NCBI GenBank assembly: GCA_003666325.1
Contig: QPIL01000116.1
Location: 1 to 64,000 of the forward strand
Direction: 5' to 3'
DNA length: 64,000 nt
DNA from: Methylococcales symbiont of Iophon sp. n. MRB-2018
GTDB lineage: Bacteria > Pseudomonadota > Gammaproteobacteria > Methylococcales > Methylomonadaceae
This document shows, in pieces, positions 1,691 through 64,000 of this stretch. Numbering within the stretch: the stretch's first letter is position 1; every line of letters starts with the position of its first letter. The notes under the pieces are model-generated. The model saw only the letters and a program-made list of their open reading frames with translations, was not told where the DNA came from and ran no database searches. The position numbers were made by a program, and so were the translations under genes.

Positions 1691-2572
1691 TTATTCTGGT
1701 GTTGAAATAGTGAACTTAACGTCACCAGTACCATAATGACCAATTGTACTTACATCCCGATAATGCTTTGGTGGCTCAAGAACCTCAAAAGGCTTAAGCT
1801 TGACAAACAACTTAATATTTTTTCTTTTTGCTTCCATGCACACGATATTTTTAGATGACTTATACGCTATATAAAACTTTTTTGGCACCTCTTCTATTGC
1901 TGAATCTAATCCCGTAACAAATTCACGAACTTCGTGCATGAGCTCAAGGATTTCTTTTGACTTACCTTCAAAATGTTTTTCAAGCGTAGAGGTGGCTGTT
2001 GCTCTCACTTGTGCAGCTTTTTTCCCAGCCTCAACCATAACTGGGTTTTTATTAGGTGGTTGAGAAATTACTGTTGCTGATTTTGTATTGTGTAACACTT
2101 CTTCCAGATAGAAGGAATTGTTTGTAAATAGACGGTATTTCCATAATTCAATATTTGCACCCATGACCTGAACAGCATGAATATCATATTTTTTGTAATT
2201 TGGAGCTATACAGATTACCCTAACATCTGTCCAATCAATCTTAACTCCATTTCCAAGTTTTTTCTGTACTGCAATTTCAAAATCTCCTTTATGATCTTGA
2301 ATCCAGTGTAGATAAAATAGGCTTTGATTTATTAGCTCCGATGATTCTACTTTTTTGTATTCAATTATGACTGGATTATCTTCTTCTGATAGGGCGAGGC
2401 TATCAATTCTTCCCGCATGTTGTGCTCCTGTTGAAAATTCAGTTGCCACAAAGCGACAATTGAAAACCTCCTCTAGGTTGCTTTCAATCAAAGATTGCAA
2501 TTCTTTTTCAAGTGAGAAATTTTTTTGTTCTACTGGAAGTAGTTTGTTTTCTGATATTTCAAATATTGGCAC
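1691..2572 (-). CDS. DUF5655-type protein with restriction-endonuclease-like N-terminal domain; C-terminus cut by a nonsense codon
   Basis: 293 residues. The N-terminal half looks like a DUF91/NucS-type PD-(D/E)XK fold: HAGRIDSLALSEEDNPVIIEYKKVES has the order Asp...Glu-Tyr-Lys typical of that active site. The C-terminal part (IEEVPKKFYIAYKSSKNIVCMEAKRKNIKLFVK) resembles DUF5655. After the TAA at 1691 the same frame continues as FEEIKQYIELAYNKVGG to a second TAA at 1637, just before attC 3. The ancestral protein was therefore probably 17 residues longer and the present stop is a late nonsense mutation. It may still be functional. Integron cassette, own start after a weak leader. Nuclease activity is an inference from the motif. 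Confidence 0.75.
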   Translation of the reverse strand: MPIFEISENKLLPVEQKNFSLEKELQSLIESNLEEVFNCRFVATEFSTGAQHAGRIDSLALSEEDNPVIIEYKKVESSELINQSLFYLHWIQDHKGDFEIAVQKKLGNGVKIDWTDVRVICIAPNYKKYDIHAVQVMGANIELWKYRLFTNNSFYLEEVLHNTKSATVISQPPNKNPVMVEAGKKAAQVRATATSTLEKHFEGKSKEILELMHEVREFVTGLDSAIEEVPKKFYIAYKSSKNIVCMEAKRKNIKLFVKLKPFEVLEPPKHYRDVSTIGHYGTGDVKFTISTPE

Positions 2573-4322: not shown

Positions 4323-4452
4323 AACATAACGCCAAATTCAGTGGCCGCTGGCAGATATAAGTTAAACTTTGTAAACACACAGAACTTTGATAAAAACTGA
4401 CCTTTGAAAACGAACCACACCGCCAGCGGTCGACTGGAATTTTTTGTTATGT
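4323..4452 (-). other. attC-like integron recombination site 6
   Basis: ACATAAC (4323) to GTTATGT (4452). Arms AAATTCAGTGGCCGCTGGC and GCCAGCGGTCGACTGGAATTT pair with the extra G and T on the + strand. The centre is a long loop. Cassette sense is -, which is opposite to the gene at 4775-5815 to its right. Confidence 0.88.
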
Positions 4453-4520: not shown

Positions 4521-4774
4521 CCTATTTTCATGCTGTTATTTTAAGTTAAAAATTTCCATAAAAATAGAGAAATTGACAGTTTTTTCTAGGTTTTTTAGTT
4601 ATAAACTACTGATTTTTAGTTAAAGTCTATTTTTCTTATGCGGATACTTCAGACTCTGACCCTAATTATTCGTTATGTTTTTTAATCATCGTCCCACCAT
4701 CAAAATGGTTGTCAAAGAACCAATAAAAGGTTGACAATAATGCTCGACAGCTATTTTTATTTACTTCAAAAAAA

Positions 4775-5815
4775 ATGACTTTAAGAGATCGCGGTAAAAA
4801 CATTCGGCGCCAAATACTGAGAGATGTCAAATATCATCCAAATGATATTGCTCACCACATTAGTCAAATATTTTCAATTTCTAGGCAAGCAGCATATAAA
4901 CATTTAAAAAAACTCGTAAACGAAGATTGGCTTGAAGCGACAGGAACAACTAGAAAAAAAGTTTATAAGTTGGGTGTGCGTAGAGAAAATACAGCAATTT
5001 TACTGCTTGATGAAAATGCATCAGAACATAGTATTTACTCCCAGGAGTTTTCTTCAGTTGTCGAAGGGTTGCCCAAAAATATAGATGATATTATTTTTTA
5101 TGGTTTTACTGAAATGGTTAATAATGCAATTGACCATTCTCAAGGTAAAAACTGCCTAATTTCTGTAAAAAGAGATAGAGAGCAAGTTGGTATTACCATA
5201 GCAGATGATGGAGAAGGTATATTTAGACGAATTACTCGACTTAAACAATTATCAGATGAAAAACAAGCAATATTAGAGTTATACAAAGGGAAACTAACAA
5301 CAGACCCTGAAAACCATTCTGGTCAGGGGATTTTCTTTACTTCAAAAATGTTTGATAGCTTTTACATATTATCTCATGATCTGGTTTTTAACCATGACCA
5401 TAAAAGGGAGCTTGATATTATTGCTGATAATACCATTGTTAAGCAGGGTACAAGCGTTCACATGCGTATTGCTCTTGATTCAACTAGAACAGATAAAGAG
5501 ATTTTTGATGGATTTAGTGGCAGTGAAGATGAGGATTATGCATTCAATAAAACCATTATTCCCGTTAATATGGCGAGAATTAATGAAGAGAATTTAGTCT
5601 CTAGAAGCCAAGCAAAAAGGTTCTTGACTCGAATTGAAGCTTTTAAATATGTGTTTTTTGATTTTGAAAATGTAGAGTCAATTGGCCAAGCTTTTGCAGA
5701 TGAAATATTCAGAGTTTACAGAAAAAGACATCCTGATATTACTATTGCTTATCAAAACACTAATGATGCTGTTAAAGCAATGATAAAACGGGCAGAAATT
5801 GATATAAATACTTGA
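4775..5815 (+). CDS. Winged-HTH + GHKL ATPase + STAS-like (DUF4325) signalling protein, inverted within the cassette array
   Basis: 346 residues in three parts. Residues 1-70 form a helix-turn-helix (FSISRQAAYKHLKKLVNEDWL with a basic wing). Residues about 90-230 form a GHKL ATP-binding domain with N-box EMVNNAIDHS (113-122), G1 box DDGEGI (144-149) and G2 box HSGQGIFFTSKMFD (181-194), but no phospho-acceptor His. Residues about 265-346 resemble the STAS-like DUF4325 (FDFENVESIGQAFADEIFR). The design recalls an anti-sigma kinase and its STAS antagonist fused to a DNA reader. It is the only + strand gene of the array. No Shine-Dalgarno is obvious at the chosen ATG. A role in regulation or stress defence is inference only. 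Confidence 0.85.
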   Translation: MTLRDRGKNIRRQILRDVKYHPNDIAHHISQIFSISRQAAYKHLKKLVNEDWLEATGTTRKKVYKLGVRRENTAILLLDENASEHSIYSQEFSSVVEGLPKNIDDIIFYGFTEMVNNAIDHSQGKNCLISVKRDREQVGITIADDGEGIFRRITRLKQLSDEKQAILELYKGKLTTDPENHSGQGIFFTSKMFDSFYILSHDLVFNHDHKRELDIIADNTIVKQGTSVHMRIALDSTRTDKEIFDGFSGSEDEDYAFNKTIIPVNMARINEENLVSRSQAKRFLTRIEAFKYVFFDFENVESIGQAFADEIFRVYRKRHPDITIAYQNTNDAVKAMIKRAEIDINT

Positions 5816-5825
5816 TATTAATCTG

Positions 5826-5883
5826 CCATAACGTTTGAAATAACGCGACGTCCCCCAATTTTGCACACATTATTTTGTTATGC
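5826..5883. other. attC-like site 7 (degenerate)
   Basis: CCATAAC (5826) to GTTATGC (5883) encloses AAATAACGCG and a partly matching CACACATTATTTTG arm. Pairing is poor, but the spacing between a gene end (5815) and the higA stop codon (5878, inside the site) is that of a cassette boundary. Confidence 0.5.
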
Positions 5884-6195
5884 TGTTTTTTGCATATTAC
5901 TAACATCTTGAATTGAATCAAGCTCTATTTTTTCGGTAACTTGCACTCTATAAAGGTCGCAACGCATTTGGATATTTAACCAAAAACCAGCTGAAACACC
6001 AAAAAACTTTGCTAAACGTAATGCTGTACTGGGTGTTACCCCCCGCTTTTTATTTACCAATTCATTAATACGTTGATAAGGAACGTGAATTGCATCAGCA
6101 AGTTCACGTTGACTTATATTCATGGGAACAAGAAATTCTTCCCGAAGCATTTCCCCCGGATGAGTTGGTTCTCTATGTGTTGGAATACGTACCAT
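5878..6195 (-). CDS. higA: HigA-family antitoxin
   Basis: 105 residues, XRE-type helix-turn-helix with the HigA hallmark N-terminus (THPGEMLREEFLVPMNISQRELADAIHVPYQRINELVNKKRGVTPSTALRLAKFFGVSAGFWLNIQ, written in parts: HPGE at 12-15, LREEFL at 18-23, FWLNIQ near 80). It binds HigB and represses the operon. It lies 9 bases downstream of higB on the same strand, the typical toxin-first order, and its stop is inside attC 7, as in other cassettes here. Confidence 0.93.
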   Translation of the reverse strand: MVRIPTHREPTHPGEMLREEFLVPMNISQRELADAIHVPYQRINELVNKKRGVTPSTALRLAKFFGVSAGFWLNIQMRCDLYRVQVTEKIELDSIQDVSNMQKTA

Positions 6196-18576: not shown

Positions 18577-18796
18577 TAGTCAATCCTTAAAAACACAACA
18601 ACCCTCTGATTTATAACAATAAATTAAACAAAAACCATAGATAAAAAAAGCAGTATTTGGTAAAATAACGGCTATTTCTTGGTCGTTTTGCTGATAAAAC
18701 ATACTAACAAAATCAACCCCGCCCAGACTTTAACACCCATAAGAAATCACCAAAAATCAAGGGGTCTTTAGTCTTTAGTCTTTAGTCTTTAGTCTC
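18577..18796 (-). repeat. MITE family A, internally deleted copy, reverse orientation
   Basis: Begins TAGTCAATCCTTAAAAACAC (right terminal repeat seen in reverse) and continues through the conserved 3' body to ATCAACCCC at about 18719. It then jumps to a segment (CCATAAGAAATCACC...AAATCAAGGGG) shared with 25520-25549 and ends in about four TTTAGTC units that touch the dnaQ stop codon. Confidence 0.85.
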
Positions 18797-19704: not shown

Positions 19705-20679
19705 TTATAATCTGTCCAGCGGTGACACTATTGCTTGCTCGTTTTGTTTTAAAACATACGTATAAATCATAGTCGTTTGCAAATCACTATGCCCAAGCAA
19801 TACCTGAATAGTGCGAATATCAATCCCTGTTTGCAATAAATGCGTGGCAAATGAATGGCGAAACGTATGGGCTGAGACTTTTTTATCAATACTCCTGCAT
19901 TTTTTAACAGCTACTTTAATTGCTTTGTTCACTGCGGACTGATCAATATGGTGGCGGCGTTCAATGTCAGTTCCAGGGTCAGTGGCAATATTTCTACTCG
20001 CAAACACATACTGCCAGTTAAATTCTTTATCCGCATTAGGATATTTTTTGACCACGGAATTTGGCAAATAAACCGAACCAAAACCCGCATGTAAATCTAA
20101 CGTATGGGTGCTTTTTCTTTGCGATAAATGTGCCTTCAATAAAGGAATGATTTTTGTTGCCAATGGTGTAACCCGATCTTTTTTACCCTTACTATTTCGC
20201 ACTATAATTTGGCCACGCTCAAAATCAATATCCTGCACCCGCAGTCGTACCATCTCAGAAATCCGCAAACCACTGCCATACAATAATGGCACCATCAAGG
20301 CATTTATGCCTCGTAATTTTGCCAACACTTTTTTAATCTCTTTAACGCTCAATACCACAGGAATATGCGGCTGTTTGCGCATGCGGGTTGCTCGCACATT
20401 CTGCAAAGGTCTTTCTAGCACTTTTTTATATAAAAACACCAACGCATTAAACGCTTGATTTTGCGTTGAAGAAGCCACATTTTGCTTAGTTACTAGATCG
20501 GTTAAAAAGTTTTCTACTTTATTTTCAGCATTTTCAACTAATGCATTTTCATCCTGCATTTTTGAAAATTTAATAAACTTTTTAATCCAATCGCAATAAA
20601 TATTTTCCGTTTGACGAGCATAATTCATCCCACGCATCACCTCTCGCATTTGTTTAATAATAGGGTTTTCTGTTGTCAT
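19705..20679 (-). CDS. intI: Integron integrase IntI (tyrosine recombinase), no attached cassettes
   Basis: 324 residues. Catalytic residues R139 (YGSGLRISE), K around 167 (SKGKKDRVTPL), H271 and R274 (HTFRHSF), H297 (LGHSDLQTT) and Y306 are present. Between them is the extra IntI-specific patch (about 197-245: AGFGSVYLPNSVVKKYPNAD, EFNWQYVFAS, DIERRHHID) that XerC/D lack. IntI recombines attC and attI sites. No attC array adjoins it: dnaQ lies on one side and a MITE and fbp on the other. The strand and distance do not fit the array at 1-8054. It may act on that array in trans. No clear attI or LexA box seen. Confidence 0.93.
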   Translation of the reverse strand: MTTENPIIKQMREVMRGMNYARQTENIYCDWIKKFIKFSKMQDENALVENAENKVENFLTDLVTKQNVASSTQNQAFNALVFLYKKVLERPLQNVRATRMRKQPHIPVVLSVKEIKKVLAKLRGINALMVPLLYGSGLRISEMVRLRVQDIDFERGQIIVRNSKGKKDRVTPLATKIIPLLKAHLSQRKSTHTLDLHAGFGSVYLPNSVVKKYPNADKEFNWQYVFASRNIATDPGTDIERRHHIDQSAVNKAIKVAVKKCRSIDKKVSAHTFRHSFATHLLQTGIDIRTIQVLLGHSDLQTTMIYTYVLKQNEQAIVSPLDRL

Positions 20680-20760: not shown

Positions 20761-21250
20761 TAGTCAAGTCTTAAAAAAGACTCAAGACTCAAGACTCAAG
20801 ACTAAAGACTCAAGACTAAAGACTAAAGACTAAAGACTAAAGACTAAAGACTAAAGACTAAAGACTAAAGACTCAAGACTAAAGACTCAAGACTAAAGAC
20901 TTAGGACTTAGGACTTAGGACTTAGGACTAAAGTAACTGGAACTTCTGTTACTACACGTCATTCCCGAAGTCTGTTATCGGGAATCTAGTTTTAAACACC
21001 CAGATTCCTGCTTAGAACATGCAGGAATGACGGAGGGAGTGAAGTGGATCTTATACCCTATTCAACAAATAACTCTGAATGAAAGAGCTTTAGTTGCTCT
21101 GTGTTTGGGGTTGATTTTGTTAGTATGTTTTATCAGCAAAACGACCAAAAAATAGCCGTTATTTTACCAAATACTGCTTGTTTTGCCTATGGTTTTTGTT
21201 TAATTTATTGTTATAAATCAGAGGGTTGTTGTGTTTTTAAGGGTTGATTA
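20761..21250 (+). repeat. MITE family A, full-length copy with 22-unit heptamer array
   Basis: The left end TAGTCAAGTCTTAAAA and right end TTTTTAAGGGTTGATTA form terminal inverted repeats bounded by TA. Inside lie 22 heptamers (20779-20932: GACTCAA, GACTAAA, then GACTTAG), then the stem AGTAAC...GTTACT, a CGTCATTCC...GGAATGACG hairpin and a conserved 180-base 3' body (GGGGTTGATTTTGTTAGTAT ... TTATTGTTATAAATCA). No ORF of note. Confidence 0.92.
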
Positions 21251-22731: not shown

Positions 22732-23162
22732 TCAAGTCTTAAAAGCCTAAAAAAGACTCAGGACTCAGGACTCAAGACTCAAGACTCAAGACTCAAGACT
22801 CAAGACTCAAGACGAAAGACTAAGAACTAAGAACTAAGAACTAAAGTAACTGGAACCTCTGTTACCACACGTCATTCCCGAAGTCTGTTATCGAGAATCT
22901 CGTTTTAAACATCTGGATTTCTGCTTAGAACATGCAGAAATGACGGGGAAGTGACGTGGCTCTTATGCCCTATTCAACAAATAACTCTGAATGGAAGAGC
23001 TTTAGTTGCTCTGTGTTTGGGGTTGATTTTGTTAGTATGTTTTATCAGCAAAACGACCAAGAAATAGCCGTTATTTTACCAAACACTGCTTATTTTGTCT
23101 ATGGTTTTTGTTTAATTTATTGTTATAAATCAGGTGGTTGTTGTGTTTTTAAGGGTTGACTA
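22729..23162 (+). repeat. MITE family A, full-length copy whose end forms the fbp stop
   Basis: TA at both ends, inverted ends TAGTCAAGTCTTAAAA and TTTTTAAGGGTTGACTA. Thirteen heptamers (22755-22845: GACTCAG, GACTCAA, GACGAAA, AACTAAG) precede the same hairpins and 3' body as in the copy at 20761. Same orientation as that copy; together they bracket fbp. Confidence 0.92.
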
Positions 23163-28608: not shown

Positions 28609-29044
28609 TAGTTAATCCTTAAAAACCACCTAAAAAAGACTCAGGACGAAGGACTCAAGACTCAAGACCCTTTGGTTTTTGATTAGTTCTGGTGCGTGGA
28701 ACGCACCCTACGGACTAAGGACTAAAGTAACTGGAACCTCTGTTACCACACGTCATTCCCGAAGTCTGTTATCGGGAATCTAGTTTTAAACACCTAGATT
28801 CCTGCTTAGAACATGCAGGAATGACGGAGGGAGTGAAGCGGATCTTATACTATGTTCAACAAATAACTCTGAATAAAAGAGGTTTAGTTGCTCTGTGTTT
28901 GGGGTTGATTTTGTTAGTATGTTTTATCAGAAAAACGACCAAGAAATAGCTGTTATTTTACCAAATACTGCTTGTTTTGTCTATGGTTTTTGTTTAATTT
29001 ATTGTTATAAATCAGATGGTTGTTGTGTTTTTAAGGGTCGACTA
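28609..29044 (+). repeat. MITE family A copy carrying a foreign GTGCG insert
   Basis: TA-bounded ends TAGTTAATCCTTAAAAACC and TTTTTAAGGGTCGACTA. Only about 4 heptamers (28638-28668), then TTGATTAGTTCTGGTGCGTG and GAACGCACCCTACGGAC, a segment also seen in the copies at 42850 and 63935, before the common hairpins and 3' body. The following 480 bases to 29532 hold no gene; a family B end-like ATACCATGTCCAACAAATAA lies at about 29238. Confidence 0.88.
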
Positions 29045-50934: not shown

Positions 50935-51470
50935 GACTAAAGACTAAAGACTAAAGACTAGAGACTCAGGACTTCGGACTTAGCCCTATCCAAAAGGGAA
51001 AATATAGCAATAAGTAGTTAACCCTTAAAAATACCATAACCATTTTATTTATAATAATAAACCCAACAAAAACCATAGAAATACAAGCAGTATTTGGTAA
51101 AATAACGGCTATTTCTTGGTCGTTTTGCTGATAAAACATACTAACAAAACCAACCCCAAACACAGAGCAACTAAACCTCTTTCATTCAGAGCTATTTGTT
51201 GAACATGGCATAAGAGCCGCGTCATTCCTCCATGTTCTAAGCAGAAATCTAGGTGTTTAAAACGAGATTCCCGATAACAAACTTAGGGAATGACCTGTGG
51301 TAACAGAAGTTCCAGTTACTTTAGTCCTGAGTCTTTCGTCTTTCGTCTTTCGTCTTTCGTCTTTCGTCTTTCGTCTTTCGTCTTTCGTCTCAAGCAGTAT
51401 TTGGTAAAATAACGGCTATTTCTTGGTCGTTTTGCTGATAAAACATACTAACAAAATCAACCCCAAAAAT
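50935..51470 (-). repeat. Nested family A MITEs with two heptamer arrays in the pilT-yggS gap
   Basis: Array one: 7 units 50935-50983 (GACTAAA to GACTTAG), which merges with GACTTAGCCCTATCCAAAAG, a relic of the IS630 N-terminus seen at 30888. Then a reversed copy starts TAGTTAACCCTTAAAAATAC (51015), runs through body and hairpins to array two (51320-51382: TTTAGTC, CTGAGTC, then 7 TTTCGTC). It is followed at 51384 by a second partial 3' body (AGCAGTATTTGGTAAAATAA ... AAATCAACCCC). Confidence 0.88.
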
Positions 51471-59179: not shown

Positions 59180-59657
59180 GACTCAAGACTCAAGACTCAA
59201 GACTCAAGACTCAAGACTCAAGACTCAAGACTCAAGACTCAAGACTCAAGACTAGAGACTTAGGACTTAGGACTTAGGACTTAGGACTTAGGACTTAGGA
59301 CTTAGGACTTAGGACTTAGAACTTAGGACTTAGGACTAAAGTAACTGGAACCTCTGTTACCACGTCATTCCCGAAGTCTTTATCGGGAATCTCGTTTTAA
59401 ACACTTGGATTTCTGCTTAGAACATGCAGGAATGGCGGAGGGAGTGACGCGGATCTTATACCCTATTCAACAAATAACTCTGAATGAAAGAGCTTTAGTT
59501 GCTCTGTGTTTGGGGTTGATTTTGTTAGCATATTTTTTAAGCAAAACGACCAAGAAATAGCCGTTATTTTACCAAATACTGCTTGATTTATCTATGATAT
59601 TTGTTCAATTTATTGTTATAAATCAAATTGTTATGGTGTTTTTAAGGGTTGACTAAT
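59180..59657 (+). repeat. MITE family A, 23-unit heptamer array
   Basis: Twenty-three units (59180-59340: GACTCAA first, then GACTTAG, AACTTAG, GACTAAA), then AGTAACTGGAACCTCTGTTA, the CGTCATTCC hairpin and the 3' body, ending TTTTTAAGGGTTGACTA. The left terminal repeat is weak or lost. It lies between the OMP gene and the glnK promoter; it may affect spacing from upstream sites. Confidence 0.9.
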
Positions 59658-63596: not shown

Positions 63597-64000
63597 TAGT
63601 CAACCCTTAAAAACACCATAACCATCTGATTTATAACAATAAAACCAACAAAAACCATAGACAAATCAAGCGGTATTTGGTAAAATAACGGCTATTTCTT
63701 AGTCGTTTTTCTGATAAAACATACTAACAAAATCAACCCCAAACACAGAGCAGCAAAACCTCTTTCATTCAGAGTTATTTGTTGAACAGATATAAGAACC
63801 GCCTCACTCCCACCGTCATTCCTGCATGTTCTAAGCAGAAATCCAAGTATTTAAAACTAGACTCCCGATAACAGACTTCGGAAATAACGTGTACTAACAG
63901 AAGTTCCAGTTACTTGAGTCCTGAGTCTTTAGATCCGTAGGGTGCGTTTGCCCGCCAAGGATGGTGGAAATGCAGTAAGATTGTCTGGAACAATCTCTGC
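63597..64000 (-). repeat. MITE family A, reverse copy running to window end
   Basis: Begins TAGTCAACCCTTAAAAACAC, contains the reversed 3' body and hairpins, two or three heptamers (GAGTCCTGAGTCTTTAG, 63917-63933), then the GTAGGGTGCGTTTGCCCGCC segment shared with the copies at 28690 and 42900. The 63488-63596 stretch carries no gene. Confidence 0.88.

What the first reader, a model, noticed from the sequence alone, without database searches (positions are those of the whole stretch)
4775..5815. Cassette-borne three-domain regulator: winged HTH, GHKL ATPase, STAS-like domain
The protein unites DNA-binding, anti-sigma-kinase-like ATPase and STAS-like domains in one chain, has no phospho-acceptor His, lies in a mobile cassette array and is the only gene read against the array orientation with its own 320-base leader. 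It could be a one-protein partner-switching regulator or a defence sensor. I know related HTH-ATPase-DUF4325 proteins exist, but not their function.
Basis: partly seen in the sequence, partly recalled or inferred. Interest (0 to 1): 0.7.

Follow-up and report, generated by a model that had tools for sequence, protein, structure and literature searches.

The report
Self-regulating one-protein DNA-binding ATPase switch
A stand-alone, horizontally spreading bacterial gene encodes one protein that joins a DNA-reading domain, an anti-sigma-kinase-like ATP-binding domain and a STAS domain, and its promoter carries evenly spaced copies of a short DNA word that the protein very probably reads to control its own production; it looks like a one-chain cousin of a recently described immune-control pair, but its final task is unknown.

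Summary
Window 4775-5815 (+) encodes 346 aa: winged HTH, intact SpoIIAB-like GHKL domain, C-terminal STAS (DUF4325). It is the only + gene in an array of attC-like hairpins. Relatives occur in about 8% of sampled same-class genomes and in viral contigs, as solo genes without a conserved partner, some beside phage integrases, under strong purifying selection.

New result: the gene's own promoter carries 2-4 direct repeats spaced 21-22 bp (41 of 48 dereplicated loci with 8 of 9 matching, against 24 of 576 control promoters). The repeated word differs between clades and tracks the recognition helix after correction for relatedness. In genomes scanned with two of these words, nearly all sites lie in front of this gene only. 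The residue at the STAS phospho-serine position is Gln in 77 of 77.

Best reading: a negatively autoregulated, ATP-dependent one-chain switch. It is related to the immune-control proteins CapK/CapS and VapKSC (PMC13373217) but a member of neither: domain order, phospho-site, partner gene and operator type all differ. Autoregulation is well supported by inference; signal and output are not shown, and defence is only plausible. New variant of a known kind.

The parts
4775..5815 (+). wHTH-GHKL-STAS(DUF4325) protein, 346 aa
4775..4972 (+). winged helix-turn-helix, residues 1-66; recognition-helix region ISRQAAYKHLKK (35-46)
   Evidence: AF2 plus structure matches to wHTH chains; half-site type follows this helix
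4976..5485 (+). GHKL ATP-binding domain, residues 68-237; N-box E113/N117/H121, G1 D144xGxG148, lid KGKLTTDPxNHSGQG
   Evidence: SpoIIAB Z 14.1; E113, N117, H121, D144, G146, G148 invariant in 77 of 77
5600..5800 (+). STAS-like domain (DUF4325), residues 276-342, with invariant Gln305 at the phospho-Ser position
   Evidence: Pfam 6.5e-16; STAS fold; Q305 77 of 77
4707..4715 (+). operator half-site copy 1, GGTTGTCAA
   Evidence: 22 bp from copy 2; ortholog L011 has two identical AAGGTTGACAAT copies 22 bp apart at about the same distance from its ATG, L003 has three copies
4729..4737 (+). operator half-site copy 2, GGTTGACAA; contains a -35-like TTGACA
4324..4452 (-). attC-like hairpin closing the cassette that holds the gene (gene inverted within its cassette)
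5828..5888 (-). short degenerate attC-like element between this cassette and the HigBA cassette
   Evidence: read by eye (TAACAA...GCGTTA on the - strand); too weak for the scan

Best explanation
The gene is a self-contained, negatively autoregulated ATP-dependent switch. Its N-terminal winged helix reads 2-4 copies of a short word repeated head to tail every 21-22 bp (two DNA turns, so all on one face) in its own promoter, up to the start codon, and represses itself (inferred, well supported). The SpoIIAB-like GHKL domain binds ATP. The STAS domain, which cannot be phosphorylated at the usual residue, docks on a GHKL domain as SpoIIAA docks on SpoIIAB. If docking occurs between neighbouring chains, it gives a head-to-tail row that fits the direct repeats (hypothesis). 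A stress signal or the nucleotide state would break the row and release a pulse of the protein. Because no other promoter was found with the operator, the output is probably carried by the protein itself (GHKL/STAS binding of another factor, or cell protection during stress or phage attack); this last step is unknown.
For: Direct repeats: exact 8-mers at 21-22 bp in 31 of 48 dereplicated loci against 7 of 576 other promoters of the same loci; with 8 of 9 matching, 41 of 48 against 24 of 576; 19 of 22 after dereplication at 60% identity; 1 of 48 at the control period 26-27 (period scan). The word changes by clade (TTGACAAT/TTTACAAT, CCTTTAAGAA, TTGTCGA, TTATAACTAG) while the period stays. Half-site distance tracks recognition-helix distance after removing distance in the rest of the protein (partial r 0.19, 0 of 500 permutations; control helix -0.04, 341 of 500). 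In genome scans 18 of 21 TTKACAAT pairs and 11 of 11 CCTTTAAGAA pairs lie just upstream of this gene; the reversed control pattern found 1 and 0 (with coordinates of 67, 68). Own genome: the pair in this promoter plus three others, no more than the reversed control. No conserved neighbour apart from integrase in a subset. dN/dS 0.02-0.13. Intact ATP site and invariant Gln305. SpoIIAB-like GHKL and STAS folds.
Against: No binding, repression, ATPase or stress response has been measured. In the window alone the repeat is only 8 of 9 and borderline (P 0.05); the case rests on relatives. About one locus in seven shows no repeat at the 8-of-9 level (for example L030, L047). TTGACA is also a -35 box, though three other clade words are not. 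Activation rather than repression is possible. Head-to-tail docking is not modelled: no complex could be predicted. Regulon scans used exact patterns in selected genomes and could miss single or degenerate sites.
Confidence: 0.62

Rival explanations
1. Single-gene anti-phage or stress-defence factor: the protein is kept low by its own operator and, when phage or DNA damage releases it, it inhibits growth or phage development, by analogy with VapKSC and the immune operons under CapK/CapS.
For: Closest characterised relatives act in immunity and respond to ssDNA (PMC13373217). Carried by integron cassette, prophages and phage contigs, in one phage reversed among structural genes, and beside integrases. 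Patchy: 31 of 369 same-class genomes. No regulon beyond itself found.
Against: Most immediate neighbours are ordinary housekeeping genes. No PADLOC model fits (best 2e-4, mainly in the HTH). It lacks the N-terminal STAS that forms the ssDNA groove of CapK. No toxin or effector domain is visible.
Confidence: 0.35
2. RsbW/SpoIIAB-like anti-sigma factor: the GHKL domain captures a host sigma factor and the fused STAS domain is a built-in antagonist.
For: GHKL is closer to SpoIIAB (Z 14.1) and RsbW (Z 12.1) than to histidine kinases or gyrase (about 9); the STAS fold matches RsfB and SpoIIAA.
Against: Sigma binding is not testable here; CapK-type kinases resemble SpoIIAB too and do not act on sigma (PMC13373217); no linked sigma gene was seen.
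Confidence: 0.2
3. Regulator of the mobile element that carries it (integration, excision or lysogeny).
For: Lies just downstream of, and in the same direction as, a tyrosine recombinase in a subset (L004, L034, L042, L176, L180, L181).
Against: In most Polynucleobacter loci the adjacent integrase has decayed to N-terminal fragments while this gene stays intact under purifying selection. Many copies are solo among housekeeping genes. The scans found essentially no operator pair other than in front of this gene.
Confidence: 0.12
4. Ordinary transcription factor with a host regulon.
For: wHTH and clear cognate sites.
Against: In the genomes scanned, paired sites occur essentially only at its own promoter.
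Confidence: 0.1

Closest known systems
CapK/CapS (PMC13373217, EMBO J 2026)
   Same: HTH, GHKL kinase and STAS domains; SpoIIAB/SpoIIAA-like; wHTH binding in the system's own promoter region; some association with mobile or immune loci.
   Different: CapK is HTH-STAS-GHKL and always followed by capS (STAS-wHTH). Here one chain wHTH-GHKL-STAS, no partner gene, phospho-Ser replaced by invariant Gln, direct repeats at 21-22 bp instead of TTAA palindromes, no downstream immune operon.
VapKSC (PMC13373217)
   Same: CapK-like GHKL kinase and a STAS protein.
   Different: VapKSC is three genes with a VapC toxin held by a phosphorylatable STAS antitoxin; no toxin is linked here. The PIN gene of the window is in another cassette with its own RHH partner.
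STAS-GHKL + stand-alone DUF4325 operons found here (L072, L075, L077, L073, L081, L084)
   Same: DUF4325 homologous to the C-terminal domain (hhalign E 5.7e-8) and GHKL homologous (6.1e-8).
   Different: Split into two genes, some with a small membrane-protein gene; phospho position often Ser or Thr; no 21-22 bp repeats upstream.
SpoIIAB/SpoIIAA and RsbW/RsbV partner switches
   Same: Folds of the GHKL and STAS domains.
   Different: Separate proteins; Ser-phosphorylated STAS; target is a sigma factor; no DNA-binding domain.

Membership tests
DUF4325 (PF14213) proteins | Match to the model over its cut-off | tested here: met
   58.2 bits against 23
GHKL ATPases | N, G1 and G2 box residues and fold | tested here: met
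   Invariant E113, N117, H121, D144, G146, G148, G183; SpoIIAB Z 14.1
Sensor histidine kinase | DHp helices with phospho-acceptor His | tested here: not met
   No HisKA match; the model goes from wHTH to GHKL without a DHp pair
CapK | Domain order HTH-STAS-GHKL | tested here: not met
   Order here is wHTH-GHKL-STAS
CapK | Immediately followed by capS | tested here: not met
   No conserved neighbour in 79 loci
CapK | Kinase activated by single-stranded DNA | not testable with these tools
   Needs biochemistry; the N-terminal STAS that forms the groove is absent
CapS / VapS / SpoIIAA-type phosphorylated STAS | Ser/Thr acceptor at the start of STAS helix 2 | tested here: not met
   Gln305 in 77 of 77; helix starts at 305 in the model
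CapS | Palindromic TTAA operator | tested here: not met
   Direct repeats at 21-22 bp; one clade has an added inverted copy
VapKSC | Operon with a VapC-like toxin | tested here: not met
RsbW/SpoIIAB anti-sigma factor | Binds a sigma factor | not testable with these tools
   Only the fold was tested
Integron cassette gene | Flanked by attC sites in an array | tested here: met
   Strong hairpin at 4324-4452, weak one near 5828-5888; not seen around L011 or L003
Known anti-phage system | Match to a PADLOC model over most of the protein | tested here: not met
   Only HTH-level matches, best 2e-4

The most novel reading that the evidence does not exclude
A phosphorylation-free, single-protein partner switch: the SpoIIAB:SpoIIAA-type GHKL-STAS interface formed between neighbouring identical chains, fixed in the unphosphorylated-like state by an invariant Gln, polymerises the protein head to tail along iteron-like direct repeats of its own promoter; nucleotide state or a stress ligand depolymerises it and releases a single-gene defence or stress effector.
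Probability: 0.22. Interest if true: 0.8.

Novelty: new variant of a known kind. Interest (0 to 1): 0.6.

Why it matters
GHKL-STAS pairs have just been shown to control bacterial immune operons (PMC13373217). This family puts the kinase-like domain, the STAS domain and the DNA reader in one widely transferred gene with an operator that can be read from sequence. That makes an unexplained DUF family directly testable with one gene and one promoter, and asks whether partner switching can work without phosphorylation.

Tried and rejected
tblastn against phage and plasmid records gave no match. PADLOC and NCBIfam gave no family name; phrog_3364 has unknown function. A conserved neighbour was sought in 79 loci and not found apart from integrase in a subset. 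The palindrome-operator hypothesis was tried first: long palindromes occur mainly in one clade, while direct repeats are general. TTGACA as mere -35 boxes: rejected as a full explanation because other clades use unrelated words with the same period. The consensus promoter and terminator scan was uninformative. The first attC scan was too strict. Sequence searches of solved structures with the DUF4325 part found nothing meaningful, so CapS/VapS (9Z71-9Z73, 9Z7O) could not be compared directly. LexA boxes were not tested systematically.

Full report
What is there. Window 4775-5815 (+) encodes a 346-residue protein. Pfam finds DUF4325 (6.5e-16) and HATPase_c_2 (5.9e-8) over their cut-offs and only weak wHTH matches. 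An AlphaFold2 model from 18 relatives (mean pLDDT 82.9) gives a wHTH at 1-66, a GHKL domain at about 68-237 closest to SpoIIAB (Z 14.1; RsbW 12.1; DesK and GyrB about 9.4) and a C-terminal domain that, modelled alone, matches STAS domains. No histidine-kinase dimerisation helices are present. The three-domain observation is therefore confirmed.

Setting. The gene lies in an array of attC-like hairpins on the minus strand, flanked by toxin-antitoxin cassettes (PIN/RHH; HigBA). It is the only plus-strand gene, with a 322-base leader. An intact integron integrase is at 19705-20679 in the window, with housekeeping genes between it and the array. The cassette location is not general: L011 (80% identical) and L003 (71%) show no attC nearby.

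Family. Relatives were found in 7 of 398 same-phylum, 31 of 369 same-class and 30 of 251 same-order genomes (the last two with a wider profile), in genome contigs and in 8 viral contigs. In 79 loci there is no conserved neighbour; the commonest recurring one is a tyrosine recombinase directly upstream in a subset. Others sit singly between housekeeping genes such as queA and tgt, or beside nitrate reductase genes. One viral copy lies reversed among structural genes. In six Polynucleobacter loci the integrase next to the gene is reduced to a fragment while the gene is intact. dN/dS is 0.02-0.13. The gene is thus a mobile but selected single-gene unit.

The operator. Word counts upstream of the gene showed TTGACAA/TTTACAA enriched, and inspection showed direct repeats. 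An unbiased period scan gave exact 8-mer repeats at 21 bp in 31% and at 22 bp in 48% of 48 dereplicated loci, against under 1% in 356 other promoters of the same loci and in shuffles, with an echo at 43-44 bp. Together, 31 of 48 loci have one against 7 of 576 controls; with 8 of 9 matching 41 of 48 against 24 of 576; after 60% dereplication 19 of 22. The word differs by clade while the period stays. Half-site similarity follows recognition-helix similarity beyond overall relatedness, and a control helix does not. In the window the copies are GGTTGTCAA 4707-4715 and GGTTGACAA 4729-4737; alone they are borderline (P 0.05), but L011 has two identical 12-base copies 22 bp apart at about the same place, although synonymous sites between the two genes are near saturation (dS 1.3), and L003 has three.

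Only its own promoter. Of 21 TTKACAAT-type pairs in 21 genomes, 18 are directly upstream of the gene, by comparing coordinates; the reversed control found 1. All 11 CCTTTAAGAA pairs are there too. In the window's own genome a looser pattern hits this promoter and three other places, as many as its control. Within the limits of exact pattern scans, the regulon is the gene itself.

The phospho-site. In SpoIIAA-type STAS domains a Ser at the start of helix 2 is phosphorylated by the GHKL partner. Here that position (305, first residue of the helix in the model) is Gln in 77 of 77 sequences, while the ATP-site residues are fully kept. In split DUF4325 relatives the position is variable and often Ser or Thr. 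The domain can bind in an unphosphorylated-like way but cannot be switched by the usual phosphorylation (inference).

Mechanism. Shown: anatomy, conserved ATP site, Gln305, operator, mobility, selection. Strongly inferred: the protein binds its own promoter cooperatively; repression is more likely than activation because copies run up to the start codon. Hypothesis: since the chain carries both halves of a SpoIIAB:SpoIIAA-type interface, neighbouring chains could dock head to tail, which is what direct repeats two turns apart would need. The signal is unknown: CapK is activated by ssDNA in a groove with an N-terminal STAS domain (PMC13373217) that this family lacks. The output is unknown: no regulon was found, so the protein itself probably acts.

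Comparison with the known. A full-text search for STAS domain, anti-phage and HATPase led to CapK/CapS and VapKSC (PMC13373217). The present family shares the parts but fails four defining tests: domain order, partner gene, phospho-acceptor and palindromic operator. The sections of the paper that were read do not describe this one-chain arrangement. Only two papers in the library name DUF4325, neither with a function. It works like, and is probably related to, these systems, but is not a member. Defence is plausible and untested.

Noticed in passing
L073, L081, L084; own genome contig C55 (L002); Francisella phage KIRK Fhv_0046-0048 in PMC7924643: Possible three-gene module: STAS-GHKL kinase-like protein, stand-alone DUF4325 protein (acceptor often Ser/Thr), and a small protein with an N-terminal hydrophobic segment. 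It looks like a CapK/VapK-type pair with a membrane effector in place of a toxin.
   Followed up: partly
window 1691-2572 (-): Cassette gene matching the PADLOC candidate-defence family PDC-S18 (1e-104), with C-terminal DUF5655.
   Followed up: no
window 20931-21231, 22844-23143, 28725-29025, 51038-51321, 59339-59632, 63620-63915; partial at 18596, 36429, 43013, 51391: Dispersed repeat of about 300 bp, 88-95% identical, MITE-like; copies also flank the integron integrase.
   Followed up: no
own genome contigs C69, C36, C47, C91 and window 19705-20679: Three intact integron integrases and several broken ones in a 2.1 Mb genome; the intact one in the window is separated from the cassette array by housekeeping genes.
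   Followed up: no
L083 2982-4253, L080 3593-4867: A further one-chain architecture, STAS-like N-terminus, GHKL, DUF4325 (about 424 aa), with His at the phospho position.
   Followed up: no
L034, L035, L143, L146, L150, L168-L171, L173, L175 upstream regions: In the CCTTTAAGAA clade the last direct repeat is followed by an inverted copy, giving a near-perfect palindrome of up to 41 bp over the ribosome-binding site.
   Followed up: partly
PMC5982333 table (Rhizophagus irregularis ESA12330.1): A fungal gene reported as of bacterial origin is annotated as an ATPase with DUF4325.
   Followed up: no
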